36,339 nt of DNA from the IMG/VR virus record IMGVR_UViG_3300009425_000044, positions 1-36,339 of that record; one strand, given 5' to 3'. The position numbers were made by a program, and so were the translations under genes. Below the pieces are notes generated by a model, which saw only the letters and a list, made by a program, of their open reading frames with translations, did not search any database and was not told where the DNA came from. Every line of letters begins with the position of its first letter. Positions within the stretch are counted from its first letter, which is position 1. The DNA is from a virus. Shown here piece by piece: positions 1 to 29,134 of this stretch.

Positions 1-3000
1 AAACTCAAAGCTGTCGCACCAGTCATCCCTGAATCTCCCCCCATGAAGAAGTTAGGCACTCCGCCTTCGGCTGCTCCAGTTCTCCTTAAAGTCGAGGGGG
101 ATTGACCAGCATTTAGATGCTGACTAATCGCATTACCCAAACTGCCTTGATTGCTACTGTAAACTCCGACTCCTACTCGGTTGTCGTATCCAATCATCGG
201 CTTCGCAGCAGACCCCGATTCCTTTATCCCCATCCTTTCCGCCGAAACTGCCCTCTCTAACGGGTTATTAAAGTTGGGAACAAATCCCCCGCTAAATCTA
301 CGCATCATCGCCAAACGCTGAAGAAGAATGTTCTTGGTCCCTGTACTCCCTGTAATTTTCGAAGGGTCTATCCCTTTTATCTGTTTTCTAAGTTCCGAAT
401 CCTTTACATCGCCAAACCACTCAGAGGAAGAACGACTAGGGTCTCTCAATGAAGCTAACTCTCGAACTTGAGATCCGAACATATCCCCTTTAAGCCCACC
501 TTGAGCTCTATAACGTAATGCTCCACCCGAATCTATTTGAACGACCTTGCCCTTCTTATCTACCATCATGTTGTCTTGAGACATACCAATCGCATCCCAG
601 TCAGCCATCAGCGCAATCTTCGCTGCACGACTTTGGATTTGCTTCATGATGTTATCTTTTTCTCCGGGTAAAGCAGACCTCATGTAAGTCCCCAGAGAAG
701 TCCCACCTTCCAAATATTTAGAGAGCATGAAAGATCTTCCCTGTGGCGTCTTGTTCAGCGAATGATCTGGAACTGGGACTCCTAAAGATCTGTATATTTT
801 ATTAGCTTCAAATTCATTTATGATGTGACCATTAGAAGCACCAAATTTACGGACAAGTTTTTCTCCAGACGGATCTAGCATTAACTCAGCACCAGTTGAT
901 CCTCCCAAATTGGCTAGTTTCTGCAAATTAAAGTTAGGCACGAATCCCGAAGAAAAATAGTCATCTTTCGGGATCGGGTAAGCCTTTTCTTGCGCCGAAT
1001 GGGTTTTAAAACTACCCGGTTTCCCAAACCCCTTTATTTCATTAGAAGGCCAATCTTTGTAGCCTAACTTCATAAGGCTGGTTTTAGCACTCCCCGTACC
1101 TGCTCCTTGCTTAAACATCGACGGCATTAGCAAGGAAATCTCTCTTTCGTGATCGAAACCATATCTCGCTCCGCTTCCTGTTGGTCCTGAGATACCAAAC
1201 TTTTGGGGATCGAAACCTAGCGGTCTTCCTTGAGCCATGTTATACAGAGAATTTAAAGAACCCTCTTTTTTATAGAGTGCTTCTATCTCTTTTTGCCCGA
1301 ATATGTCTTTGCCGGAAAGTCTAGTTTTAGCCATGTACCCATAACCCTTGTCAGGGCCATGTCTCATAGCGAACGTACTAGCAACGTGTTTATTCGTGGA
1401 CGCAGACATGAAAGGATCAAGACCAGAATTGTTAAAGCCACTCCCTAACATATCGCCACTTGACGAATTCCCTATGTGTTTCGAAAGAGCTTTTTTAAGC
1501 TGATCGGGGGTTGACGGCATTCCGATATTCGGTATCCTCCCTTGCCATATGCCCATCCTCCCAGATAATGCATCCTGAACAGTCCCCGCTCCTCCGCCAA
1601 GACCTTCAGGGAGCCTTTGCCTTGCTAGTGCTCTCCTTCCTTCGATACCTCTGTAAACTTCCGTCATACCGAAATTCGGAATATGACCTTTCCCTAGAGT
1701 TTTATTGAAGAACCTTTCTCCTGGCCAAGGGTTACCATTGCCGGTGAAACCGTGCCCATCGACTTGTCCTTTTCTGCTTAATCCCATCCATTTATAGTAG
1801 CTTCTAGCTTTTTCCCTAAAGCCCCCTTGACCGGGTTCGTTTTTTATCCTATCTATAACTGCACGACGTATTTCTTGCGATTTATTCTTCCTTCCTACGT
1901 CAAAATCACCCGTTAATTTTTTTATTCCTAATTTTTTCAGGATTTTTGCTCCTCTTGGTGTCATTAACGTCTTGATCACGGGCGGACCAACTATGGTGGG
2001 AGCGTGAAGAGTATGAAATTTCTCAATCTGGGATAGGTCAGCTCCAGTCCTCGCGAATTCGGCTCTCCGTTCCGAGTTTGTCATCTTACTTATCTGATCG
2101 ACTCTTGCGCTCCTCTGCTTTATCTGATTAATTAATCCCTTCAATCCTCCTACCCCCGACATGTATCCTATGTTTAGCTGTCCGCCATGATCACTAATGC
2201 CGCTTTGCCAACTTGAGCGATGGATGGTCCCCGGAAACTTCGTGGTCTCCGACGCGTTTGAAAAAGACGGAGGCTTCGGCGATGACCGTGGGGGTAGCGG
2301 TGGTCCAATGTCCCAGGGCATTCTCAAGGGCCTTCTCAAGGAGAAATTCGGAACATGACCTCCTGCTAGAGTCTTACTGAATTCCCTTCCTCCCGAATAT
2401 CCAGAGCCTAGATGTCCCCCGGTTTCGCTGAGCCACTTCGGATTAAGAGGCGTCGATCTCTCCGGTTTTTTTAATCCTAGCCATTTATAGTAGCTTTTAC
2501 TTTTTTTCAGAAAGCTCCCTTGACCGGGTTCATCTTTTATTCGTTGGACAAGTGCCTTGCGTATAGAAGGCATTTTGGTGTTAAAACTACCCGTTAAATT
2601 TTTTATCCCTAACCCTTTAAGGATATCCAGTCCTTTTGGTGTCATCAACGACTTGATCACTTTGTGGCCAACTATGTTGGGAGCATGAACAGTAGTATAA
2701 GCACCAGGCCCATTTCCATACTGAGCCGCGTTTTGCCTATTCCTTATCTTATTAATTAATCCCTTCATTCCCCCTACCCTTGACAGCCAGTCTATGGTTA
2801 GCGTTGAAGTGTCTCCCATTAGGTTCCTCGAAAGAAAATTACGCGGGGAAGCCTCCGAATGGGGACGGCGCAATTCATCTCGATGGCGGCGGAGATCGTT
2901 CGGCTTTTTCTGTCCGGGTAGCGGTGGTAGCGGTGGGTCCATTGGCGACGGTAGCGGTGGTCGTGGGTCTCCGCCAACCAAACGGTCGAACCTTCGCGGT

Positions 3001-5693
3001 GGTAGGAGGCCAAAATTCGGGATATGACCTTTCCCTAGAGTTTTTTCGAACATCCTGACGCCCCTGCTATGGCGGCCTTTCCGTTTTTTCATTCCCAGCC
3101 ATTTATAGTAGCTTTTAGTTTTTTGCAGGAAGCTCCCGTGACCGGGTTCGTTTTTTATTCTATCTACAATTGCGCGACGAAAATCACTGTAAGGCTCCTT
3201 CGCTGACTGACCAATGTCAAAATCACCCGTTAATTTTTTTATCCCTAACCTTTTAAGGACAGACGCTCCTCTTGGCGTTATTAACGACCTGATTACCTGC
3301 GGACCAACTATGGTGGGAGCGTTAAGAGTATGATAAGGCTGAATATGCGATAAGTCTGTTCCAGGAGGGAGTCGCATTTGTTCAGCCAAACGTTCCGAGC
3401 TTGACATCTTGCTTATCCTCTCAGCGTATGCCTTCCTATCTTTTATCTGAGTAGCTAATCCCTTCATTCCCCCTACACCTGACATGTAGCCTATGTCTAA
3501 CTCTCCCAATCGCAAGTCCCGACCGCCACTTGCCCGATCAACGTCAGAACTACTAGCCCAGTCTGAGCGTCTCCTTTGAGATGCGAACTTCGTGGGTGGC
3601 TTCGCGTTCGTCTGCGTTGACCAAAATGACGACGGACTCGCCGCCCCTGGTGATGATGGATGCGGCGGGACGAAACGACCTGATCTAAAGGCTCCCATCA
3701 TATTGAAATTCGGAACGAAGCCTTCGGCTCCCATCTGCTGACCCATCGCACGGCCAATCCTATCTGGTCGGCTACTTGAGTATGGGTCTATCCCTGTCTT
3801 AGAAATAGATTTGATCCTATGCTTTTTACCTGCCTTGCTATCCTTTGGCGGACTAATAAAAGGTTGCTTGAAGCCGCCTAAAAAATCAACTTTCTCTGCA
3901 TCGTTGTAGGTCACCTTACCTACCCCAGCCATACTAAAGCTCTTGACCTCGCCCGGACTGTAGCCTCCAGCATAAGCGTTTACCCTTTCTGCCGTCCTGT
4001 TCTGCGCGTTAGTTTCGGGTATGTGTCCAGACGCTCTCCCTCTCCCTCCTCCCATTTGGAAGCCTCCTGTTTTCGAGTTCTGTATCATCCCCCCTCTCAT
4101 TCCCATCGCGGCGACATTCATCCCGAGAAGAGAATTCTGCTGCATCGCCACGCCTTGGGCTCTTATAGAGGCTAAGATGTCTTTTTGAACCATAGCCATC
4201 GAACTCGTCCTTGAAAGAGATAGTTGGATTAACTGAGGATTTTGAGCCAACATTTCGTTGATCTGCTTTTGGAGCGTCCTCTGCTGTGTGGTTGCGTCAT
4301 TTATGCCTATGATTTGCCTTAGCGCGATTCCCGAAAACTTTATAGCACTACCCAATGTTTTCGCTATGGCTACCACCGCTATACCTAATCCGGGTCCAGA
4401 TATAGCCGCCCCTAACCCTTTGATAAGACCTTTCCCGATATTAGCCCCTAATCCTTCCGCCCCTTCTTTTGGGGTAAGAGCCTCCGATATCTTACCTCCT
4501 ATATTTAAAATATTCTTCAGGGCTGGGCCCACCAAGTCCTTACCTATTACTGCTCCAAATTCTTTGAACGACTCTGTAACTTTATTGACTAACGCTGATA
4601 TCGTAAGATTTAATTGAGCATTTCTCTGTAGCGCAGAATTATTATTCCTCAACGCTATCTCTTGCGCTTGATCAAAGAGATTGTACTCTTTCGACAAGTC
4701 GGAAATTGCTGCCATCAATTGGTTAACTTGATACAAGCCACCAGCCATGATCTTGACTTGCTGCTGTTGAGATTGGCCTAGGCCATCGTACGCCTTGGCT
4801 GTATTCTTCAATATTTGCAAACTATTAAGCCATAGTCCGTTTTGCTCTTTTACTTTAATGCCCATCGCAGCTAACTGCTCCATGGCCTTGGGCCTTTGGA
4901 TCTTGACAAAAATGGACTTAATTGCGTTACCAATAACAGGAGCGTTAAGAGCGGTCTTTTGTTTAATCACTGTTATCAACGCGCCAAGCTCCTCGAAAGA
5001 AACACCAGCAGTAGCAGCGGCAGAAGCTGATCTTTTCAGGGCCTCCGCCAAGTCCCCAGTGCTTACGGCAAAATTAGCATCCAAGTTAGCAAGTTTATTA
5101 ACGACCTGAGTAGAGGTGAGACCAGCGGCGGTAAAAGTATTCATCGCGGCAGTGAGAGCTTCAACTGCTGCTTTGGAATCTAAACCAGAAAGACGGACTA
5201 ATACCATCGCGTCCCTAACCCTTATCATAACCTGCTCGGTGGTGAGACCTTGCCGTGCTAACTCATTAGCAGAATCAGCTACAGTACCAAAAGCCTGACC
5301 CGTATCTTTGGCTATTGCGAATAATTTACTGCGAAAATCTGAAAGCTCCGATGTCGTCCCTTTTAAAAGAACATTGATTTGGGCTAGTCTTTTCTCTACA
5401 TCAATTGTACTCGAAACTAACTCCTTCATTGCCGAGCCAACAGCATATATAGCTCCAGCGGAAGCCCCGAAAGCAAAAACACGAGCATTGGCGGCAGCCA
5501 TTGACTTCCCAAACTGATCTGCTCCTTGAGTCATTGACCCAAGAGCCATCTTAGAAGCACCCGAATCGGAAGATGAAATAGGGTTAAATTTTGCCTTTTT
5601 CTCTATCCTGTTAAGAGAACTCTTAACATTCCTCTCTAGACCCCTAGTGTCTAGTCTTGCTCTAACGTCAATAGTTGCTACTGGTGCTGCCAT
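1..5693 (-). CDS. Tail tape measure protein with C-terminal enzyme-module array (partial, runs off window)
   Basis: This open frame starts at ATG 5693 and stays open to position 1, giving at least 1,897 residues with no stop. The N-terminal third (about residues 20-420) reads as a tape-measure core: alternating helices, Ala/Gln-rich, with an ELGALITVIKQKT-type stretch seen in TP901-like tape measure proteins. A hydrophobic Gly/Ala/Ile segment lies near residues 418-450. Beyond residue about 650 the protein becomes modular, and each module ends in G[FH][VI]PNF (residues 658, 889, 1112, 1336, 1583, 1803, and a shortened form near 1878). Modules 2-4 are related copies. The next carries an ADP-ribosyltransferase-like signature and the following one a kinase-like signature. 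Known role of the family: it sets tail length, fills the tube and is ejected at infection. Delivery of the extra domains into the host is my inference. The gene is last in the tail block, as expected. Confidence 0.88.
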   Translation of the reverse strand, partial: MAAPVATIDVRARLDTRGLERNVKSSLNRIEKKAKFNPISSSDSGASKMALGSMTQGADQFGKSMAAANARVFAFGASAGAIYAVGSAMKELVSSTIDVEKRLAQINVLLKGTTSELSDFRSKLFAIAKDTGQAFGTVADSANELARQGLTTEQVMIRVRDAMVLVRLSGLDSKAAVEALTAAMNTFTAAGLTSTQVVNKLANLDANFAVSTGDLAEALKRSASAAATAGVSFEELGALITVIKQKTALNAPVIGNAIKSIFVKIQRPKAMEQLAAMGIKVKEQNGLWLNSLQILKNTAKAYDGLGQSQQQQVKIMAGGLYQVNQLMAAISDLSKEYNLFDQAQEIALRNNNSALQRNAQLNLTISALVNKVTESFKEFGAVIGKDLVGPALKNILNIGGKISEALTPKEGAEGLGANIGKGLIKGLGAAISGPGLGIAVVAIAKTLGSAIKFSGIALRQIIGINDATTQQRTLQKQINEMLAQNPQLIQLSLSRTSSMAMVQKDILASIRAQGVAMQQNSLLGMNVAAMGMRGGMIQNSKTGGFQMGGGRGRASGHIPETNAQNRTAERVNAYAGGYSPGEVKSFSMAGVGKVTYNDAEKVDFLGGFKQPFISPPKDSKAGKKHRIKSISKTGIDPYSSSRPDRIGRAMGQQMGAEGFVPNFNMMGAFRSGRFVPPHPSSPGAASPSSFWSTQTNAKPPTKFASQRRRSDWASSSDVDRASGGRDLRLGELDIGYMSGVGGMKGLATQIKDRKAYAERISKMSSSERLAEQMRLPPGTDLSHIQPYHTLNAPTIVGPQVIRSLITPRGASVLKRLGIKKLTGDFDIGQSAKEPYSDFRRAIVDRIKNEPGHGSFLQKTKSYYKWLGMKKRKGRHSRGVRMFEKTLGKGHIPNFGLLPPRRFDRLVGGDPRPPLPSPMDPPLPPLPGQKKPNDLRRHRDELRRPHSEASPRNFLSRNLMGDTSTLTIDWLSRVGGMKGLINKIRNRQNAAQYGNGPGAYTTVHAPNIVGHKVIKSLMTPKGLDILKGLGIKNLTGSFNTKMPSIRKALVQRIKDEPGQGSFLKKSKSYYKWLGLKKPERSTPLNPKWLSETGGHLGSGYSGGREFSKTLAGGHVPNFSLRRPLRMPWDIGPPLPPRSSPKPPSFSNASETTKFPGTIHRSSWQSGISDHGGQLNIGYMSGVGGLKGLINQIKQRSARVDQISKMTNSERRAEFARTGADLSQIEKFHTLHAPTIVGPPVIKTLMTPRGAKILKKLGIKKLTGDFDVGRKNKSQEIRRAVIDRIKNEPGQGGFREKARSYYKWMGLSRKGQVDGHGFTGNGNPWPGERFFNKTLGKGHIPNFGMTEVYRGIEGRRALARQRLPEGLGGGAGTVQDALSGRMGIWQGRIPNIGMPSTPDQLKKALSKHIGNSSSGDMLGSGFNNSGLDPFMSASTNKHVASTFAMRHGPDKGYGYMAKTRLSGKDIFGQKEIEALYKKEGSLNSLYNMAQGRPLGFDPQKFGISGPTGSGARYGFDHEREISLLMPSMFKQGAGTGSAKTSLMKLGYKDWPSNEIKGFGKPGSFKTHSAQEKAYPIPKDDYFSSGFVPNFNLQKLANLGGSTGAELMLDPSGEKLVRKFGASNGHIINEFEANKIYRSLGVPVPDHSLNKTPQGRSFMLSKYLEGGTSLGTYMRSALPGEKDNIMKQIQSRAAKIALMADWDAIGMSQDNMMVDKKGKVVQIDSGGALRYRAQGGLKGDMFGSQVRELASLRDPSRSSSEWFGDVKDSELRKQIKGIDPSKITGSTGTKNILLQRLAMMRRFSGGFVPNFNNPLERAVSAERMGIKESGSAAKPMIGYDNRVGVGVYSSNQGSLGNAISQHLNAGQSPSTLRRTGAAEGGVPNFFMGGDSGMTGATALS
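384..929 (-). other. Kinase-like (HipA / PI-kinase-like fold) domain inside the tape measure protein
   Basis: Residues about 1589-1770 follow a GFVPNF motif and resemble an atypical kinase. A G-S-T-G turn precedes a Lys-bearing strand (LVRKF) and then a helix with Glu (NEFEANKIYRSLGV). A hinge-like LSKYLEG follows. The catalytic-loop-like M-A-D-W-D1700-A-I-G-M-S-Q-D1707-N1708 comes next, and a metal-binding-like Q-I-D1721-S-G-G-A-L-R-Y-R-A-Q-G comes last. The D...DN...ID-x-GG layout is shared by HipA, actin-fragmin-kinase-like and PI3/4-kinase-like enzymes. The spacing is compact, about 180 residues, so it would be a minimal member. Substrate is unknown, and protein or lipid phosphorylation are both possible. 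Calling it a kinase rests on motif order alone. Confidence 0.58.
1104..1667 (-). other. ADP-ribosyltransferase-like domain inside the tape measure protein
   Basis: Residues about 1343-1530 show the three landmarks of R-S-E class ADP-ribosyltransferases in the right order. These are Y-R1348-G just after a GHIPNF motif, then PF-M-S1430-A-S1432-T followed by an Ala/Phe helix (VASTFA), and finally H-E1516-R-E1518-I-S-L-L. Spacings of about 82 and 84 residues are compatible with the fold. In this family the Arg and Ser residues hold NAD and the second Glu of E-x-E is catalytic. The usual S-T-S is S-A-S here. A degenerate RIPNI copy of the linker motif lies inside the domain near position 1530. Target and activity are unknown. 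Phages such as T4 inject ADP-ribosyltransferases (Alt), which makes a takeover role plausible but unproven. Confidence 0.62.
1671..2180 (-). repeat. Tape measure module copy C
   Basis: Third related module. It has GYMSGVGGLKGLINQI, HTLHAPTIVGPPVIKTLMTP, LGIKKLTGDFDVG, DRIKNEPGQGGF, RSYYKWMGL and ends in KTLGKGHIPNF, immediately before the ADP-ribosyltransferase-like domain. It is closer to copy A than to copy B in the first half. Confidence 0.8.
2343..2803 (-). repeat. Tape measure module copy B
   Basis: Second related module. It has WLSRVGGMKGLINKI, TTVHAPNIVGHKVIKSLMTP, LGIKNLTGSF, RIKDEPGQGSF, KSYYKWLGLKK and ends in KTLAGGHVPNF. It lacks part of the segment following the first landmark that copies A and C have. 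A proline-rich linker precedes it (about 2890-3000). Confidence 0.8.
3012..3503 (-). repeat. Tape measure module copy A
   Basis: First of three related modules within the tape measure protein. Landmarks are IGYMSGVGGMKGL, then HTLNAPTIVGPQVI, LITPRGASVLKRLGIKKLTG, a helix RRAIVDRIKNEPGHGSF, KSYYKWLG and a terminal KTLGKGHIPNF. It shows no recognisable catalytic motif and is rich in basic and aromatic residues. Confidence 0.8.
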
Positions 5694-6836: not shown

Positions 6837-7883
6837 TCAATTTTCGGTCCCTTTATCTTCGGGCTCTTCTGACTCTTCGGACTCTTCGGACTCTTCGGGT
6901 GGCATTTCATCCTTGGACTCTTCAGCTTCCTTTTCAGCTTCGACTTCCTTTTCGGCTTCGACTTCCTTTTCGGCTTCGACTTCCTTTTCGGCTTCGACTT
7001 CCTTTTCCATCTCTTCTGCCTTGGCTATGACATCCTTTTGGGCTTCTTCCATCTTCTCTTCCTCTTCTTTTATAAGATCACTAAAGGCTTCATCTATGTC
7101 TTCTTTTGGAATTCCGCCTCCAGCTTCCGAAGTGGAATCTTCCAGCATCTGCTCTGATTTGGATAGAGCCTCGAATTCTTCTTGAGTACTCGCTCTTCCA
7201 ACGTACCAATAACTTATGTAATAGGAATAAGTCCTTAAAACTTCGTCGATGTAATCGTTCCCTTCTTCTTCTAGGGCATCATAAACCGTTAGTTTTTCTT
7301 CCGAATTTCCATCCCCGAAAAAGGGAATCTCATCCCCAGCTTCTGAGGTTTCGTAGGACAAATTCAAAACCCACCACATAATCGTTTTCGTCCGCGCTCT
7401 GTTTTCGGCGGTTTGATCGAAAAAACTAGCTTGAGCAGTTTCGAAGTCCTGTATTTTAGCTCTACACCCGATCAACGCTCTTACGGCTGCGTTGTATTTC
7501 TCACGTTCTTCTTCCGTCTGCTCTGCTTTCGGGATTATCTGTAAGCGAGTAACCTCGTTTTGTAGCTCAAACATAGTGAAGTAAAGCCCAGAATATTGCT
7601 CTTGATCGGCCTCGCTTAACACTCCTCCATCGTTATCGAACCTTTTGGCTAACATTGCCCTCGTGAGCATCCCTGCCTTAATTCCTTCGGACAGCTTAAC
7701 GCCAAAATATAATTCAGCCTCGTCAAACATCACCCGCGTAGGTTTTTTAAGGAAAAAAGACCTTTCCTTATTCGTCTCTACGGTCTTCTTGACTGTGACC
7801 TCGTTACCGTCTGCATCTTTACTCTTTTCTTCTTCCTCTCTGAGAACAGGCTGAGTAAGTGTAAATTCGTATAATTTTTTCAT
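6837..7883 (-). CDS. Putative tail assembly chaperone-like protein, 348 aa, with acidic repeat tail
   Basis: The N-terminal 240 residues look folded (YEFTLTQPVLREE, SFFLKKPTRVMFDEAELYFGVKLSEGIKAGMLTRAML). The last 100 residues are almost only Glu, Lys, Ala, Val and Ser, built from tandem KEVEAE hexads followed by EES triplets. This predicts a long charged helix or disordered tail. The start ATG (7883) overlaps the stop of the upstream 78-residue gene by four bases (ATGA), indicating translational coupling. Position between tail tube and tape measure suggests a tail assembly chaperone or tape-measure partner. Length exceeds typical siphophage chaperones, and no frameshift signal was found at its end. 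The function is inferred from context. Confidence 0.72.
   Translation of the reverse strand: MKKLYEFTLTQPVLREEEEKSKDADGNEVTVKKTVETNKERSFFLKKPTRVMFDEAELYFGVKLSEGIKAGMLTRAMLAKRFDNDGGVLSEADQEQYSGLYFTMFELQNEVTRLQIIPKAEQTEEEREKYNAAVRALIGCRAKIQDFETAQASFFDQTAENRARTKTIMWWVLNLSYETSEAGDEIPFFGDGNSEEKLTVYDALEEEGNDYIDEVLRTYSYYISYWYVGRASTQEEFEALSKSEQMLEDSTSEAGGGIPKEDIDEAFSDLIKEEEEKMEEAQKDVIAKAEEMEKEVEAEKEVEAEKEVEAEKEVEAEKEAEESKDEMPPEESEESEESEEPEDKGTEN
6922..7008 (-). repeat. 18-bp tandem repeat encoding KEVEAE
   Basis: On the plus strand the unit cttcgacttccttttcgg recurs about four and a half times with almost no change. It encodes EVEAEK hexads on the minus strand. A separate nine-base repeat (gactcttcg type, encoding EES) lies at about 6862-6897. 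Near-identity at DNA level suggests recent slippage. Confidence 0.85.
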
Positions 7884-13021: not shown

Positions 13022-15256
13022 TTAGGTTTTAAACCAAACATCTCCGTTATCACCTCCACTAGGACTGCTAGAAGATACTGTTATATTAATACTTGGCCCA
13101 GTTGCGCCAGTAGGACCTGTTCCCCCAGCGGGTCCAGCGGGACCAGTAGATCCGCCACCACCAGCGGGTCCAGCAGCACCAGTCGCACCGGAAGGACCAG
13201 TTGAACCAGCAGGACCAGCAGGACCAGCAGGACCAGCAGGACCAGAGCCTCCTGAAGAACCAGCGGGTCCAGCAGCACCAGTCGCACCGGAAGGACCAGT
13301 CGAACCAGCGGGACCAGCGGGACCAGTAGGTCCAACTGCCCCAGTAGCACCAGAAGGTCCACTAGCACCTGAAGATCCAGTAGCACCAACATCACCGGAA
13401 GGTCCCTTTAGGTCGTCTACTGTTCTCCATCCTACCCGCCCTTCGTCAGCAGCAGATAAAGTTAATATTTGATTGCTGCTACCAGAAGCGGCTTCTAAAT
13501 AAACGGTTCCGCTTACCGCTAATCTTTCTGATTTTGCCGCGTGTGTGTACCCGACCATTAAGCTAGAGGAACTCGCTGCGCCTATTGAAACGTCACCATC
13601 CACGTCTAGTTGGAGCCACAATGCATCGCCATCGAAAGACTGAATGGTGTTCGGCCTACTGGCTCCCGTTCCTATGGCGAGATCCCCAGCCAATATGCCT
13701 CCAGAAGCATAAGGTATGTTAGGCACTTTTATAAATGAGCTACTAGGATTGCTTGTAGTACTATAAACGAGACTAGTCGCTCCTGCGAAAGCACCATTAT
13801 TATTATATTGAAATTCTCTATTGGAGCCCGAAGGAGTTCCTCCGCCTCCTGCTCCAGCAGGACCAGCGGGTCCAGTTGAACCAGCGGGTCCAGCGGGACC
13901 AGCGGAGCCTGTAGCTCCAGTAGGACCAGCCGAACCGGCGGAACCAGCGGGTCCAGCGGGTCCAGTAGGGCCAATAGCCCCTGTCGCCCCACTAGGTCCT
14001 GTGGGCCCATTTAAGTCATCTACCGTCCTCCACTTTACCCGACCTTCGTCTTCATCAGATAAAGTTAGTATTTGATTGTCGCTACCAGAAGCTGCATGTA
14101 AATAAACGTTTCCGCTTACTCCTAATCTTTCTGATTTCTGACCGGGTCTATAACCGATTTGTAAACTTGACGCGCTACGTTCTCCTACTGAAATGTCACC
14201 ATCCACGTCTAGTTGGAGCCACATTGGATCGCCATCGAAAGACTGAATGGTGTTCGGTCTACTGGCTCCCGTTCCTATAGCGAGTTCTCCAGCTAATATA
14301 CCTCCAGTAGCAAAAGGTAAGTCGGCTACTTTTATAAGTGCACTACTAGGATTAGAAGGAGTGCTGTAAACAAGACTAGACGCTCCTCCGAAATTGCCCA
14401 TATTGTTGTATTGAAATTCTCTATTAGAGCCTGAAGGAGTCCCCCCGCCTCCTGCTCCAGCGGGACCAGTGGGACCAGCGGGACCACTGGCTCCACCGGG
14501 ACCAGCGGGACCAAGGCCACCAGCGGGACCAGCGGGACCAGCGGAACCCGTAGCTCCAGAAGGACCAGTCGAACCAGCCGAACCAGCGGGTCCAGTCGAA
14601 CCAGCGGGTCCAGTCGAACCAGCGGAGCCTGTAGCTCCAGTAGGACCAGCCGAACCAGCGGGACCAGCCGAACCAGCGGGACCAGCGGGTCCAGTCGAAC
14701 CTCCAGCTCCCGGAATTCCTGAAGGTCCAGTAGGACCAGCCGAGCCATCCGAGCCATCGTTACCGGGGTTACCTTGGGGTCCTTGCGGACCAGCGGGACC
14801 AGCAGGTCCTCCATCTGGCCCAATAGCTCCTGAAGGGCCAACTGAACCAGAAGGACCAGTAGGTCCAGCAGGGCCAAGATTTCCTTGAGATCCTGTTGAC
14901 CCTGATGGTCCAATAGGGCCCACAGGACCAGTAGAACCCACAGGACCAGTAGAACCCACAGGACCAGCAGAGCCTATAGATCCAGTCGCCCCAGAAGGAC
15001 CAGTGGAACCTACTGATCCTTGAGGTCCCTGAATGCCTTGAACTCCTTGAGGCCCTTGAGACCCGGTAGGCCCAGTAGGACCAACAGGTCCTCCAGCGGG
15101 TCCTTGGGGTCCTTGGGGCCCTTGCGGACCAGCAGGACCAGAAGAACCAGCGGGACCCGAACTACCTGCGGGACCAGTAGACCCAGCAGGGCCGCTAGTC
15201 CCAGAGGGGCCTGAAGGTCCGACTTCCCCTACTTGTCTGTTAATCCAATTAGCCAT
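13022..15256 (-). CDS. Collagen-like fibre protein 1 (744 aa) with duplicated internal domain
   Basis: Gly-x-y repeats rich in GPT, GPS, GPA and GAT occupy residues about 10-265, 420-466 and 620-720. Between them lie two copies of a 150-residue beta-type domain (about 266-419 and 467-619; [55 protein letters not shown]). The C-terminus ends in [10 protein letters not shown], a motif common at the end of phage fibre proteins. Collagen-like phage proteins trimerise and form stalks. Proline is mostly in the x position. The protein precedes the connectors rather than following the tape measure gene, so it may decorate the head or neck. No transmembrane segment was seen. Confidence 0.88.
13400..14461 (-). 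repeat. Duplicated fibre domain in collagen-like protein 1
   Basis: Two copies of one domain lie at about 14000-14461 and 13400-13859, offset by about 602 bases with long near-identical DNA stretches. Both are followed by a new collagen block. This is a recent in-frame domain duplication. Confidence 0.85.
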
Positions 15257-15688: not shown

Positions 15689-17923
15689 TTAACCAAGAAT
15701 TATACTATATTTTATAATTTGTCTGGTCAGATCTGCACTATCTAAAGCTCCAGACACAGTCAAGGTCCCTCCAATTACAGCCGTGGTGGTGCTCACTGTG
15801 CCTCCCGACACCGTCAAAGAGCCTCCTACTGAAGTATTACCAAAAATTACAGAACTACCACTATTGACAATTCCACCTGAACCGAAATTAGTTGTTGTAT
15901 TTATACTCGCTGGAAATTGTATGCCCCCAGTGCCCAGAACGAGTAAAGTCGTCGAATCACCAGATTGCATTACATCATTTATAAGAGGCGTTCTTCTTAC
16001 TATGAAATTATTATCAACATTCCTTAATTCGACTACGTCTTCACCCACCATATAAATGCTATCGCCTTTAACAAATAAATCCTTCCAAGGTTTAACCACA
16101 GAGCCTATGTCGAAAATTCCGCTCTCCTTAGGCATAAGATCTCCACTAATATGTACTCCGCTATAAAGAGATATTGTGTTCCCGCTCTCGATGACTAACC
16201 CGCCAGAACTAATTACTATTCCGCTAGTTATCCCTGATGTTAGGGTTACTGATGGCCCAGAAGGACCGACGTTCCCCTGCTCTCCTTTATCTCCAGTTCT
16301 AGCAAAAGTTATTACTATATTCTCATCGTTATCAAGCGAACTAACACTTCCGTCTATATACGTACAGTTAACTTCAAAGTAGCCAACGTTCTCTGTTATC
16401 GAATTTACGACATAAATAACAAACTTATCGCTATCGTCTTCGTGAGATACTTTAAAGTGACCTTTTACCGTGCTGGTGGAATCGTCTATCGTTCTCAAAA
16501 AAGATTGTATATCGTTTGAGTATATATCTTTATCGTCTATATAGAGAGTAGTCGCTAATGCTAAATTAGAGTTATTAAATCTTAGATCCCCTGCTGCTCC
16601 ACCGGGAGACGGATCAGCATTCGTCGTGCTGGTATCGAACGTATACCGGAAAGAAGCTCCGCCAAAACTGCCCTGTGGGCCAGTCGGCCCAATAGATCCT
16701 GTGCTTCCTGTAGGACCGATGCTTCCTCCCGCGCCAACGGAACCTGCGGGACCCGTAATCCCAGTCGCTCCAGAAGGACCAGTCGGGCCAATCGGACCAA
16801 TAACACCGGAATGACCAGACGGCCCAATAGGACCCGTGACAGTAGAAGATGCCCCCACAAGTCCACTAGCACCAGAGGGTCCGGTTGAGCCAATAGACCC
16901 AGCGGGACCAGTAGGCCCAGCGGGACCAGCAGCCCCAACAGGGCCAACGGAACCTGTAACACCAGAAGGCCCAACGGGACCAGCAGGTCCGATAGGTCCA
17001 GCCACAGTTGAAGGCGAACCCGTAGCACCGGATGGGCCAGTTAACCCTCTCGGGCCAGTAGGCCCAATAACGCCAGTCGCACCGGAAGGTCCAGTAGATC
17101 CTAATGGCCCTATAGGACCTATAGGACCTGTAACACCTAATGGCCCCTGAATTCCTTGAGCTCCTTGAGGTCCTTGAGCTCCTACTCCACCAGCAAGACC
17201 GACAGGGCCTTGTACTCCACTAGGGCCAGTAGAACCTACGGGGCCAGTAGGCCCAATATCCCCATCGTCTCCTTTATCTCCTTCGGGACCAGCAGGGCCG
17301 AGAGGACCGATAGGACCGACAGTGCCTTGCGATCCTTGAGGACCTCTCGATCCAGCAGGGCCAGTGACACCAACGGAACCAGTGGGGCCAACGGACCCGA
17401 CATTTCCTTGAGATCCTTGAGGCCCAGTTGATCCGCTCGGACCGCTAGAACCAGCGGGTCCAGTGGGTCCAGTTACTCCTATAGCCCCAGATGGTCCAGC
17501 GGGACCAGCGACAGTAGACGCCGTACCTGTTGGGCCTACAGGGCCCGTTAAACCAGTGGCTCCAGATGGGCCAATAGAACCAGCGGGACCTACAGGACCC
17601 GTAGGCCCTATAGAGCCAATCCCCCCGCTAGGTCCAGTTGGTCCGGTGGGACCTAGACCCGTACCGCGAGGACCCGCAACTCCTGACGGCCCAGTAAGAC
17701 CGATGCCGCCTGAAGGTCCGATAGGACCAGTCGGGCCAAGCGGACCTTGAGGACCCTGCACGGGAATAGAAACAGTTGCTGTTTGAGAATCAGAAGGACC
17801 GATAACGGAAGAGGACGTAGTGGCGACTTGGGTAGTTATAGTCGCCGAATTAGAAGAGCTCGTACTGGTTACGCTCGATAACGCGCCAGTAGAGATCGTT
17901 GCGGTTATAACTTGGTCAGGCAT
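15689..17923 (-). CDS. Collagen-like fibre protein 2 (744 aa)
   Basis: An N-terminal Ser/Thr-rich head (residues 1-55) is followed by Gly-x-y repeats over about 57-418. A globular domain follows (about 420-545; [35 protein letters not shown]), then a short second collagen stretch. The C-terminus is beta-solenoid-like, built from Gly/Ser/Thr turns with GG at regular intervals ([10 protein letters not shown] near the end). Its length equals collagen-like protein 1 exactly, although the non-collagen domains differ. Likely a trimeric virion fibre. The start overlaps the upstream stop (TGATG). Alternative names such as tail fibre or head fibre cannot be separated here. Confidence 0.86.
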
Positions 17924-27310: not shown

Positions 27311-29134
27311 TTAAATCATTATAGGACGGAAAGTATTTGTTTTCACCTCTAAATTCATCGACGTAATGTCAAAATATACCTTCGCTGCCCAGTTCGCCAT
27401 GAGTAATGTCGTATAGTTATCTCTCCTCGCTCTGTTCGGTGAAGTATTTCGCTTTAAGTGCTGTGGCAAATCAAAGGTTTGGTTTCCCTTAGCAGTGCTT
27501 TTCACTTCTATCAAAGCGCATTGCTTCTTCACTTGGTATATAAGATCATCCTGAGTTTCAATCAACTCTAAAATATTATCCTCACCGACTAGGTCCATAT
27601 TTATCCTAAGTTTGCTTTGCGAGTCAAAAGCCTTATTGTCAGCCGTTGATTTCGACGCAAACCAAATTCTCTTGTGATCTATAGCCGCCTGTAAAAGCTC
27701 ATTAGACTTCCTTAGCCAACTACTATTAAACACTTGCTTGTAACAAATCGTGTGGTTTTCTTTATTAAATACAGCTTTCGCTTTTTTAATTTCTTTTATG
27801 TAATCCAATCCTTCTTTATCCGTATTGATATCGAAGAAGTTTAATACGTTGTCTCTAAAAAGTTCCGACTCATTACACCCATCTATGAATTGAAAACCAG
27901 CGTTATCTATGCATATCATTTCTATGTTAAAGTTTTCGACTACATAGCTAAAGTATTTTATGTGATCTTTTAGATCTCCTCCTGCTACAGCGTAATTGTG
28001 TACTACTGTAGTCTGTTTAGACTCCATATCTAACTCAAGAATGCACATAGCAAAGTAGTCAGAGCTTGGGCTGTTTGAAAAAGAAGGATCAATGGCGACT
28101 AAATATTTCTGATTAGATTTGCCTCTTATTAGGGTATGAGGACTTTCTCCGTCAGGGATAGTACATTCGTGCATCTTTCTCCCACTGAAGTAAGAATCAC
28201 TCCCATCCGTGAATTGAGCGCAATACTCTCTTTGAAAAGACGAGTGGCTTTGTCCGCCGTTTTGAGCTTCTTCGATTATTGTAGAATCGATCATATGATC
28301 TGGAAGAGATTCCCAGCCTAGTTGAGATATAAAATATGTCGCATCTCTGATCACGGAATCATCATATATATTCTGCATCCATTCTTTGTAAGTTTTATAC
28401 AAATTCTCAAAAGTATAAGAAGCTGATGAAAGAGCTATCATCTTTGAGTTGTTCTGGAACTTCATCCTGTCTTCTTCTTTCATTAGCCCTTTCTCTATAA
28501 GGCCGTTCTCCATTTCCCTGATTTCGATACGCTCCTTCATGTCTTGAGGGGCAACCAAAAACGGCATGAGCACGGTTTTGATTGTATCCTCAGGAAGCAA
28601 CAGAAACTCGTCGAGGACTAAAACGTTAGCTCTAAATCCGCGAATCTTTTCTCCACTCAAAGGGATCGCTGTTATGGAGCCTCCGTTTATTTGCCACTCA
28701 AAGGCGTCGTTCCGTTTTGCCTTCGCTCCGAATGCTTGTTGGAGTAAAGAAGCTCCCTTTGTGTCCACTAACTTTTCTAGATTGTTGAAGATAAATCTCG
28801 CGGTACGGAAAGTGGGACCCGCAATAAGAATCTTTGTCTTCGGCTCAAAGATGCATTGCAAGAAGCAAAAGACCGAGGCTATAAACGTCTTACCGCAACC
28901 GCGCCCCCAGACGCACATAGAGAAGTTCCGGTTCATCATTCCCTTTAAGGTGATCTCCTGAAACTCAGCTAATTTAATTCCAGATATTAACTCGGTAGTA
29001 AAGCCGAGATTACCTCGCAGAAATTTAGCCAAAGACACCTTCGCGGCTGTGTCATCTAACTCCCCCTTTAGGCTGAGTATTTCTTTGTTAACGTCCGGTA
29101 ATGGGCGATTATATTTTTCTGGGCAATACCACAT
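27311..29134 (-). CDS. Terminase large subunit
   Basis: A 607-residue packaging motor with both domains. The ATPase has Walker A GRGCGKT (residues 77-83), an AGPTFRTARFIF coupling segment, and Walker B VLVLDE (171-176) followed by a SSASYT motif near 236. The RNase H-like nuclease shows VAID349PS, MICID410NAG and an acidic residue in ARRDNYTTLLMANW near the C-terminus. The stop of the upstream nuclease gene overlaps its ATG (TAATG at 29134). Terminase type (cos or pac) cannot be judged from sequence here. Confidence 0.95.
   Translation of the reverse strand: MWYCPEKYNRPLPDVNKEILSLKGELDDTAAKVSLAKFLRGNLGFTTELISGIKLAEFQEITLKGMMNRNFSMCVWGRGCGKTFIASVFCFLQCIFEPKTKILIAGPTFRTARFIFNNLEKLVDTKGASLLQQAFGAKAKRNDAFEWQINGGSITAIPLSGEKIRGFRANVLVLDEFLLLPEDTIKTVLMPFLVAPQDMKERIEIREMENGLIEKGLMKEEDRMKFQNNSKMIALSSASYTFENLYKTYKEWMQNIYDDSVIRDATYFISQLGWESLPDHMIDSTIIEEAQNGGQSHSSFQREYCAQFTDGSDSYFSGRKMHECTIPDGESPHTLIRGKSNQKYLVAIDPSFSNSPSSDYFAMCILELDMESKQTTVVHNYAVAGGDLKDHIKYFSYVVENFNIEMICIDNAGFQFIDGCNESELFRDNVLNFFDINTDKEGLDYIKEIKKAKAVFNKENHTICYKQVFNSSWLRKSNELLQAAIDHKRIWFASKSTADNKAFDSQSKLRINMDLVGEDNILELIETQDDLIYQVKKQCALIEVKSTAKGNQTFDLPQHLKRNTSPNRARRDNYTTLLMANWAAKVYFDITSMNLEVKTNTFRPIMI

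What the first reader, a model, noticed from the sequence alone, without database searches (positions are those of the whole stretch)
1104..1667. ADP-ribosyltransferase-like domain built into a tape measure protein
In one continuous frame with the tape-measure core there is a Y-R1348-G, then M-S1430-A-S1432-T, then H-E1516-R-E1518 series, the order and spacing of R-S-E ADP-ribosyltransferases. Tape measure proteins are ejected into the host, so this would deliver an NAD-dependent modifying enzyme with the genome. T4 Alt is injected from the head. A carrier built into the tail ruler would be a different route.
Basis: partly seen in the sequence, partly recalled or inferred. Interest (0 to 1): 0.85.

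Follow-up and report, generated by a model that had tools for sequence, protein, structure and literature searches.

The report
Enzyme cargo inside phage tail ruler
The protein that sets the tail length of an uncultured phage carries, in the middle of the same chain, an exchangeable set of enzyme-like modules (here a probable ADP-ribosyltransferase next to a HipA-like kinase), and many related phages carry different modules in the same slot, so phages may load host-modifying enzymes into the tail and not only the head.

Summary
The motif is real. In one 1897-codon frame with a TP901-type tape measure core lie Y-R1348-G, F-M-S1430-A-S1432-T-x3-V-A-x2-F-A and E1516-x-E1518. No shuffle of the module reproduces the triple (0 of 2000).

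Residues 1339-1586 are one module of a "cargo bay" delimited by G-[FHYL]-[VI]-P-N-[FY] linkers. All 82 tape measure proteins (TMPs) compared carry this motif: 375 copies, none in the core, 2 in 604,657 aa of other ORFs. Contents vary: mostly PD-(D/E)XK-like nucleases (56 of 82), in others GHKL ATPase, GNAT, nucleotidyltransferase, PcfJ, SNase.

Support for the ADP-ribosyltransferase (ART) reading: (1) similar modules sit in other phages' TMPs, including a family of 8 sequences, all in TMPs, with R, S-x-S and E-x-E invariant while the middle of E-x-E varies; (2) the adjoining HipA-like kinase module (E down to 8e-16) occurs in MuF/portal proteins that often also carry a Pfam ART.

Weak points: no Pfam hit; motif spacing two to three times that of ordinary phage ARTs; both AlphaFold models low-confidence; delivery untested.

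Verdict: probable R-S-E ART in a modular TMP cargo bay; a new carrier for virion-borne effectors.

The parts
3..5693 (-). Tape measure protein ORF, residues 1-1897, C-terminus beyond the contig end
   Evidence: TIGR01760, PF10145 and 16 PHROG tail-length tape measure families
4476..5450 (-). TP901-type tape measure core, residues 82-406
   Evidence: TIGR01760 E=1.3e-35
3780..3980 (-). Conserved segment before the bay (GGY..G...VTYN..EKV....QPFI.PP..SKAGK..R.....G.DPY), residues 572-638
   Evidence: alignment with relatives
3705..3722 (-). Bay-opening linker GFVPNF, residues 658-663
3027..3704 (-). Repeat module A1, residues 664-889, function unknown
   Evidence: phmmer against A3 E=1.5e-62
3012..3029 (-). 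Linker GHIPNF, residues 889-894
2358..3011 (-). Repeat module A2, residues 895-1112
   Evidence: phmmer against A1 5e-26
2343..2360 (-). Linker GHVPNF, residues 1112-1117
1689..2342 (-). Repeat module A3, residues 1118-1335
1671..1688 (-). Linker GHIPNF, residues 1336-1341
948..1670 (-). ART-like module, residues 1342-1582
   Evidence: R-S-E triple; co-linear hhalign match to the TMP-borne ART-like family A6, pairwise E=0.0012 over 116 columns, above 300 shuffles and all but one of the other TMP segments
1650..1652 (-). R1348 codon (YRG)
   Evidence: invariant in A7
1398..1406 (-). S1430-A-S1432 codons (S-x-S)
   Evidence: invariant in A7; pattern match 1369-1412
1140..1148 (-). E1516-R-E1518 codons (E-x-E)
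   Evidence: both E invariant in A7, middle residue free
930..947 (-). Linker GFVPNF, residues 1583-1588
288..929 (-). HipA-like kinase module, residues 1589-1802; K1616, E1627, D1700, D1707-N1708, D1721-x-G-G kept
   Evidence: tblastn to phage proteins down to E=8e-16; profile E=2.7e-66 and conserved residues across 82 sequences; one homologue matches PF07804/PF20613 weakly
270..287 (-). Linker GFVPNF, residues 1803-1808
66..269 (-). Conserved bay-closing segment (R.GVGVYSSNQGSL.NAI..HLNAG..), residues 1809-1876
   Evidence: matches the same segment of relatives at 51 and 46% identity
48..65 (-). Bay-closing linker GGVPNF, residues 1877-1882

Best explanation
The region is an R-S-E-type ADP-ribosyltransferase module carried, together with a HipA-like kinase module, in a variable cargo bay between the structural core and the C-terminal coil of a tape measure protein. 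Modules are separated and bounded by G-[FHYL]-[VI]-P-N-[FY] linkers. Most likely mechanism: the TMP is built into the tail as usual; at infection it leaves the tail ahead of the DNA, and the cargo modules enter the host with it (probably unfolded in the tube, refolding afterwards, perhaps cut free at the linkers); the ART and kinase then modify host proteins early, much as T4 Alt or MuF-borne effectors do. Shown here: the architecture, the linkers, the module exchange between phages, the conserved catalytic-type residues and the kinase-module homology. Inferred: ART fold and activity, virion presence of the cargo, delivery, targets, linker function.
For: Motif triple at exact positions, 0 of 2000 shuffles. 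S-x-S signature scanned over all viral contigs: the two hits in complete genes are R-S-E ARTs. Related modules in other phages' TMPs: the L158/L180 family, 8 loci from a whole-collection scan, all in TMPs, R, S-x-S and both E invariant while x in E-x-E is A, R, S, N, H or E; in the joint alignment with window and L133 only 10 columns are invariant, including R, both S and both E. hhalign window vs that family ranks 2nd of 496, above all 300 shuffles. TMP-borne family and window rank 1-3 of 82 profiles against an R-S-E ART profile, above 60 column-shuffled decoys. Kinase module: 19 phage records including the particle-associated 'ADP-ribosyltransferase toxin' WOL24339 of fHe-Yen8-01; PF03496 confirmed in four of five proteins checked; of 46 kinase-bearing phage proteins 19 match MuF, 12 PF03496, 10 PF01129, 6 portal. 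Bay motif: 375 hits in 82 TMPs, 0 in cores, 2 in 604,657 aa of other ORFs. Other enzymes in the bay: PD-(D/E)XK-like module with E 57/57, D 56/57, D/E 55/57, K 56/57, HIGH NTase 3.4e-8, HATPase, weak GNAT, PcfJ, SNase. Lambda TMP reaches the inner-membrane ManYZ complex during injection (PMC13190303); RcGTA TMP is modelled as ejected with DNA (PMC7296036).
Against: No Pfam, NCBIfam or PHROG match for the module. No close homologue anywhere searched. R-S and S-E spacings are two to three times those of ordinary phage ARTs. The alignment of E-x-E in A7 was helped by trimming the window sequence just after that motif. AlphaFold: pLDDT 40 alone, 51 for the family model; Foldseek best E 4.9; two ADP-ribosyltransferase CDTa chains among 7 hits at E 9-9.6 are not significant. 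hmmsearch with an ART profile does not clearly separate the window module from shuffles (rank 11 of 1888). No data on virion content, processing or ejection.
Confidence: 0.72

Rival explanations
1. The cargo bay is real but the module at 1342-1582 is another enzyme or a binding domain whose Y-R-G, S-x-S and E-x-E are coincidental.
For: No domain-library hit, unusual spacing, unconvincing models, low hhalign probability in absolute terms (5.7 to 19.7%).
Against: 0 of 2000 shuffles; R, S, S, E, E invariant across independent TMP modules; pairing with a kinase that elsewhere accompanies ARTs.
Confidence: 0.2
2. The bay is cut out of the TMP during tail assembly (linkers as protease sites) and the released enzymes act in the producing cell or are discarded, not injected.
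For: A highly stereotyped linker at every module boundary; a folded 25-kDa domain is hard to fit in several copies inside a tail tube (general knowledge of tail lumen size); lambda gpH and other TMPs are processed (general knowledge); some bays hold an HExxH motif that could be a peptidase.
Against: There is no obvious reason to tie enzymes for the producing cell to the tail ruler; sister modules ride in MuF/portal and particle-associated proteins.
Confidence: 0.25
3. The modules are structural or receptor-type elements at the tail tip that happen to be enzyme-derived, including degenerate (inactive) copies.
For: Three tandem copies of an unknown module (A1-A3) next to the enzymes; kinase positions I1693, D1698, Q1719 deviate from residues that are 98-99% conserved.
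Against: Catalytic-type residues of kinase, nuclease and ART modules are kept; the range of unrelated enzymes is that of injected effectors, not of structural parts.
Confidence: 0.1
4. Assembly or frame artefact joining unrelated genes.
For: Single record; contig ends inside the gene.
Against: 1897 codons open without a stop; same plan in 82 TMPs from many metagenomes and MAGs, open frames up to 10,441 aa.
Confidence: 0.02

Closest known systems
Polyvalent proteins (Iyer et al. 2017, PMC5512222)
   Same: Several unrelated effector-type domains (ART, kinase, GNAT, nuclease, NTase) in one virion-linked polypeptide; exchange of modules between relatives.
   Different: The paper never mentions tape measure proteins; [quoted passage not shown] Here the carrier is the TMP and the ART-like module is R-S-E.
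MuF- and portal-fused ARTs (PMC9503650; PMC5576092)
   Same: R-S-E ARTs and, as found here, the same HipA-like kinase module in one protein.
   Different: Carrier is a head protein; module order is kinase then ART; ART spacing is compact and Pfam-recognisable. The survey of 21,191 viral proteomes does not mention tape measure carriers.
T4 Alt / ModA / ModB
   Same: R-S-E motif; L269 (Alt/ModA-like) has FLSTSTDGTVATGFARR and DEREF where the window has FMSASTNKHVASTFAMR and HEREI.
   Different: Alt is a separate head protein, not built into a structural tail protein; no significant sequence match.
TP901-type tape measure proteins, e.g. SPbeta YomI, Lactococcus 949-type TMPs
   Same: Core homologous.
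   Different: Matches stop at the core; no cultured phage in the collection showed the bay.
Polymorphic toxins / MuF toxins
   Same: Constant trafficking part plus exchangeable effector modules.
   Different: Cargo is internal, flanked on both sides by linkers, and several modules can occur in series.

Membership tests
R-S-E ADP-ribosyltransferase | Arg in strand 1 (aromatic-R-G) | tested here: met
   YRG 1347-1349; invariant R in A7
R-S-E ADP-ribosyltransferase | S-x-S strand followed by helix | tested here: met
   FMSASTNKHVASTFA; signature hits elsewhere are ARTs
R-S-E ADP-ribosyltransferase | E-x-E | tested here: met
   E1516, E1518; both E invariant and middle residue free in the related TMP family
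R-S-E ADP-ribosyltransferase | Typical motif spacing of phage R-S-E ARTs | tested here: not met
   82/88 aa against about 27-29/37-43; not an absolute requirement of the superfamily
R-S-E ADP-ribosyltransferase | Significant match to PF03496, PF01129 or PF18760 | tested here: not met
R-S-E ADP-ribosyltransferase | ART fold with NAD pocket | tested here: inconclusive
   pLDDT 40 and 51; no significant fold match
R-S-E ADP-ribosyltransferase | NAD-dependent transfer activity | not testable with these tools
   needs a bench assay
TP901-type tape measure protein | TIGR01760 / PF10145 core at the N-terminus | tested here: met
   E=1.3e-35 and 1.8e-25
HipA-like kinase | Lys, Glu, D-x6-D-N, D-x-G-G catalytic-type residues | tested here: met
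   K1616, E1627, D1700, D1707-N1708, D1721
HipA-like kinase | Match to a kinase family model | tested here: inconclusive
   No match for the window module; one of 46 homologous proteins matches HipA_C at 0.0028 and HipA_2 at 0.0056
Polyvalent protein | Two or more disparate enzymatic domains in one polypeptide | tested here: met
   ART-like and kinase-like modules adjoining; both enzymatic by motif only
Polyvalent protein | Virion packaging and injection | not testable with these tools
   TMPs are virion proteins by family; presence of this cargo in the particle unknown

The most novel reading that the evidence does not exclude
A large, so far uncultured phage lineage uses the tape measure protein as a general-purpose effector carrier: an internal, linker-delimited bay into which enzymes (ARTs, kinases, nucleases, acetyltransferases, nucleotidyltransferases) are swapped, delivered to the host from the tail lumen ahead of the genome.
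Probability: 0.55. Interest if true: 0.88.

Novelty: new variant of a known kind. Interest (0 to 1): 0.75.

Why it matters
Injected phage effectors are known from heads (T4 Alt, MuF and portal fusions, polyvalent proteins). The tail ruler leaves the particle first, so a bay inside it would put enzymes into the cell before the DNA, the best moment to disarm defence or redirect the host. It also raises a concrete structural puzzle: how tandem folded domains are stored in or threaded through a tail tube, and what the GFIPNF-type linker does. The linker is an easily searched tag for finding hundreds of unknown candidate early effectors.

Tried and rejected
Pfam, PHROG, NCBIfam and PDB sequence searches of the module alone: nothing significant; best PDB hit 2kxi at E=1.2, aligned at the S-x-S strand. 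Direct scans for homologues of the module or whole TMP in viral contigs: none, because exact seeds were too specific; solved by going through the terminase and then an alignment of TMP cores. tblastn of the module against phages and plasmids up to E=10: nothing convincing. About 790 bacterial genomes of two groups: no match, uninformative without a positive control. Profile of ordinary phage ARTs against the window: rank 11 of 1888, not significant. AlphaFold on the window module alone and on the TMP-borne ART-like family: low confidence, so fold searches were not used as evidence. The PNI at residue 1388 was first taken as a linker; alignment with L158/L180 (MPSF, LPSF) shows it is inside the module. 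Weak DUF6824 hit to repeat A1 (25.0 bits, below the 27 cutoff) was set aside. By-eye guesses of HAD (L159), Nudix (L099) and two kinase-like modules (L097) got no Pfam support and are not claimed.

Full report
OBSERVATION. The ORF on the minus strand from window base 5693 to base 3 is open for 1897 codons and runs off the contig. Its N-terminal part is a TP901-type tape measure core (TIGR01760 E=1.3e-35, PF10145 E=1.8e-25, sixteen PHROG tape-measure families). The ordered triple was absent from 2000 shuffles of the module, from 345 other TMP segments and from 4643 ORFs of the TMP loci, and present in 7 of 24 real phage ARTs under the same regular expression, which was written after seeing the window. 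A DNA pattern for the S-x-S strand plus helix gave 4 matches in all of IMG/VR; the two in complete genes are R-S-E ARTs, one Alt/ModA-like (L269), one fused to a portal and 2H domain (L271). What is not right in the finding is the spacing: 82 and 88 residues here, against about 27-29 and 37-43 in ordinary phage R-S-E ARTs.

ARCHITECTURE. After the core, the protein is cut into modules by G-[FHYL]-[VI]-P-N-[FY] linkers: at residues 658, 889, 1112, 1336, 1583, 1803 and (as GGVPNF) 1877. Between them lie three copies of an unknown 220-residue module (A1-A3), the ART-like module (1342-1582), a kinase-like module (1589-1802) and a conserved closing segment (1809-1876).

RELATIVES. No cultured phage has a related terminase at E<=1e-20, but the terminase finds 368 loci in viral contigs; five of the 50 records searched also hold the TMP, with frames of up to 4796 aa. 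An alignment of five TMP cores (A1) then found at least 458 related TMPs in viral contigs and 7 in bacterial MAGs. They share one plan: core to about residue 540, linker, 80 conserved residues (QPFI.PP.S.AGK..R...G.DPY), linker at about 630, variable bay, linker, about 70 conserved residues (GLGVYN..QGSL..AI..H...G), linker, coil. The linker motif occurs 375 times in 82 non-redundant TMPs, never in the core, once beyond residue 2700, zero times in shuffles, and twice in 604,657 aa of other ORFs from the same loci. Linker-bounded segments, including the constant ones, fall into about 78 similarity groups. In 56 of 82 TMPs there is a module with the PD-(D/E)XK pattern G-x2-F-E...D...(D/E)-x-K...K, with E 57/57, D 56/57, D/E 55/57, K 56/57. 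Others match HATPase, HIGH nucleotidyltransferase, GNAT (weak), PcfJ and SNase models. Frames reach 10,441 aa.

IS IT AN ART? Library searches say nothing. Looking through other bays after a profile ranking showed modules with the same order of motifs: L133 (LYRG..IISTSKRPSVAREFA..EYEV) and L158/L180 (LYRGQ..SFSTSKTVAKDFAG..EAEV). A scan of all viral contigs with the L158/L180 pair returned 8 loci, two of them the query contigs again, and all are in TMPs (five show the core motif, three begin with or lie inside recognisable TMP sequence). In this family of 8 sequences (57-97% identical to L158) R10, S75, S77, E213 and E215 do not vary, while the residue between the two Glu is A, R, S, N, H or E. 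Two fixed Glu with freedom between them is what an E-x-E motif looks like. Aligned with the window module and L133, only ten columns are invariant and five of them are R, S, S, E, E; this alignment was helped by ending the window sequence just behind its E-x-E, so the Glu columns are weaker evidence than the R and S columns. The window module aligns co-linearly with the L158 family over 116 columns from YRG past the S-x-S helix to K-x-IF-x-x-K (hhalign pairwise E=0.0012), ranking second of 496 against shuffles and unrelated TMP segments; the one segment above it aligns over 28 columns only. Against an R-S-E ART profile built from kinase-linked phage proteins, the TMP-borne family, its subset and the single window sequence rank 1, 2 and 3 of 82 profiles, above 60 column-shuffled decoys, with the match on the S-x-S strand and helix. 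Absolute probabilities stay low (1-20%), so this is a ranking result, not proof of homology. Structure prediction failed to decide: pLDDT 40 for the window module alone, 51 with pTM 0.48 for L158 with ten sequences, no significant fold match.

THE NEIGHBOUR. The module at 1589-1802 matches 19 phage records at E between 8e-16 and 1e-8. They include the particle-associated 2146-aa 'ADP-ribosyltransferase toxin' of Yersinia phage fHe-Yen8-01 and the Pseudomonas phage Jeremy ADP-ribosyltransferase. Pfam finds PF03496 in four of five of the proteins checked; in Gordonia phage Mareelih the kinase-like and ART domains are in gp77 and gp79. A scan found 482 relatives in viral contigs. Among 46 such proteins 19 match MuF, 6 a portal, 12 PF03496, 10 PF01129, 6 Nudix, and 21 show a downstream R/S-x-S/E-x-E triple against 0 in the upstream control. 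The conserved residues K, E, D-x6-D-N and D-x-G-G are kept in the window; a weak HipA_C/HipA_2 match of one homologue suggests a HipA-like kinase. The window therefore places next to its ART-like module the module that elsewhere travels with ARTs in virion proteins, in a different carrier.

MECHANISM. Shown: architecture, linker, exchange, conserved catalytic-type residues, kinase-module homology. Inferred from the biology of TMPs: the TMP leaves the tail during infection (lambda TMP is labelled next to the inner-membrane ManYZ complex during injection, PMC13190303; the RcGTA TMP is proposed to be ejected with the DNA, PMC7296036), so the modules would go with it. A tube of ordinary width does not hold several folded 25-kDa domains side by side (general knowledge), so either the cargo is stored unfolded or staggered, or it is cut out before assembly; the stereotyped linker fits a processing or docking site. 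This is the main uncertainty about delivery.

COMPARISON AND NOVELTY. The polyvalent-protein paper does not mention tape measures and says R-S-E Alt-clade ARTs are absent from genuine polyvalent proteins. The NAD/ADP-ribose survey of 21,191 viral proteomes describes head packaging via MuF and portal and no tape-measure carrier. Literature searches for tape measure plus ART, polyvalent or toxin domains found no precedent in the held library; most subscription papers and all preprints are not covered. The kind (virion-borne effector modules) is known; the carrier, the internal bay and the linker appear new.

VERDICT.

Noticed in passing
L277 / G895 and L278 / G896: Tape measure frames of 10,441 and 8,172 aa with many P-N-F linkers, far longer than usual TMPs.
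   Followed up: partly
82 TMPs, e.g. L107 residues 628-893: The commonest bay module looks like a PD-(D/E)XK nuclease (56 of 82 TMPs), unrecognised by Pfam and PHROGs.
   Followed up: partly
L128 TMP residues 977-1547; L108 residues 1081-1303: Bays with an HExxH motif (HEAAH, HESTH), in L128 together with a GHKL ATPase; possible self-processing peptidase.
   Followed up: no
window 1689-3704: Three tandem copies of a 220-residue module of unknown function (GVGG.KGL; TPRG..ILK.LGIK.LTG.F; SYYKW.G) ahead of the ART-like module.
   Followed up: partly
window 6837-7883 (-): Protein two genes from the TMP ends in an acidic repeat (EVEAEKEVEAEKEV...), in the place where tail assembly chaperones usually lie.
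   Followed up: no
window 13022-15256 and 15689-17923 (-): Two 744-aa collagen-like tail fibre proteins, with an L-shaped-fibre-assembly-like protein beside them.
   Followed up: no
window 27311-29134 (-): Terminase of a lineage with 368 relatives at about 70% identity in viral contigs but no match at E<=1e-20 in 50,697 phage records.
   Followed up: partly
L188-L267: HipA-like kinase module plus R-S-E ART is a recurrent pair in MuF and portal fusion proteins (482 loci with the kinase module).
   Followed up: partly
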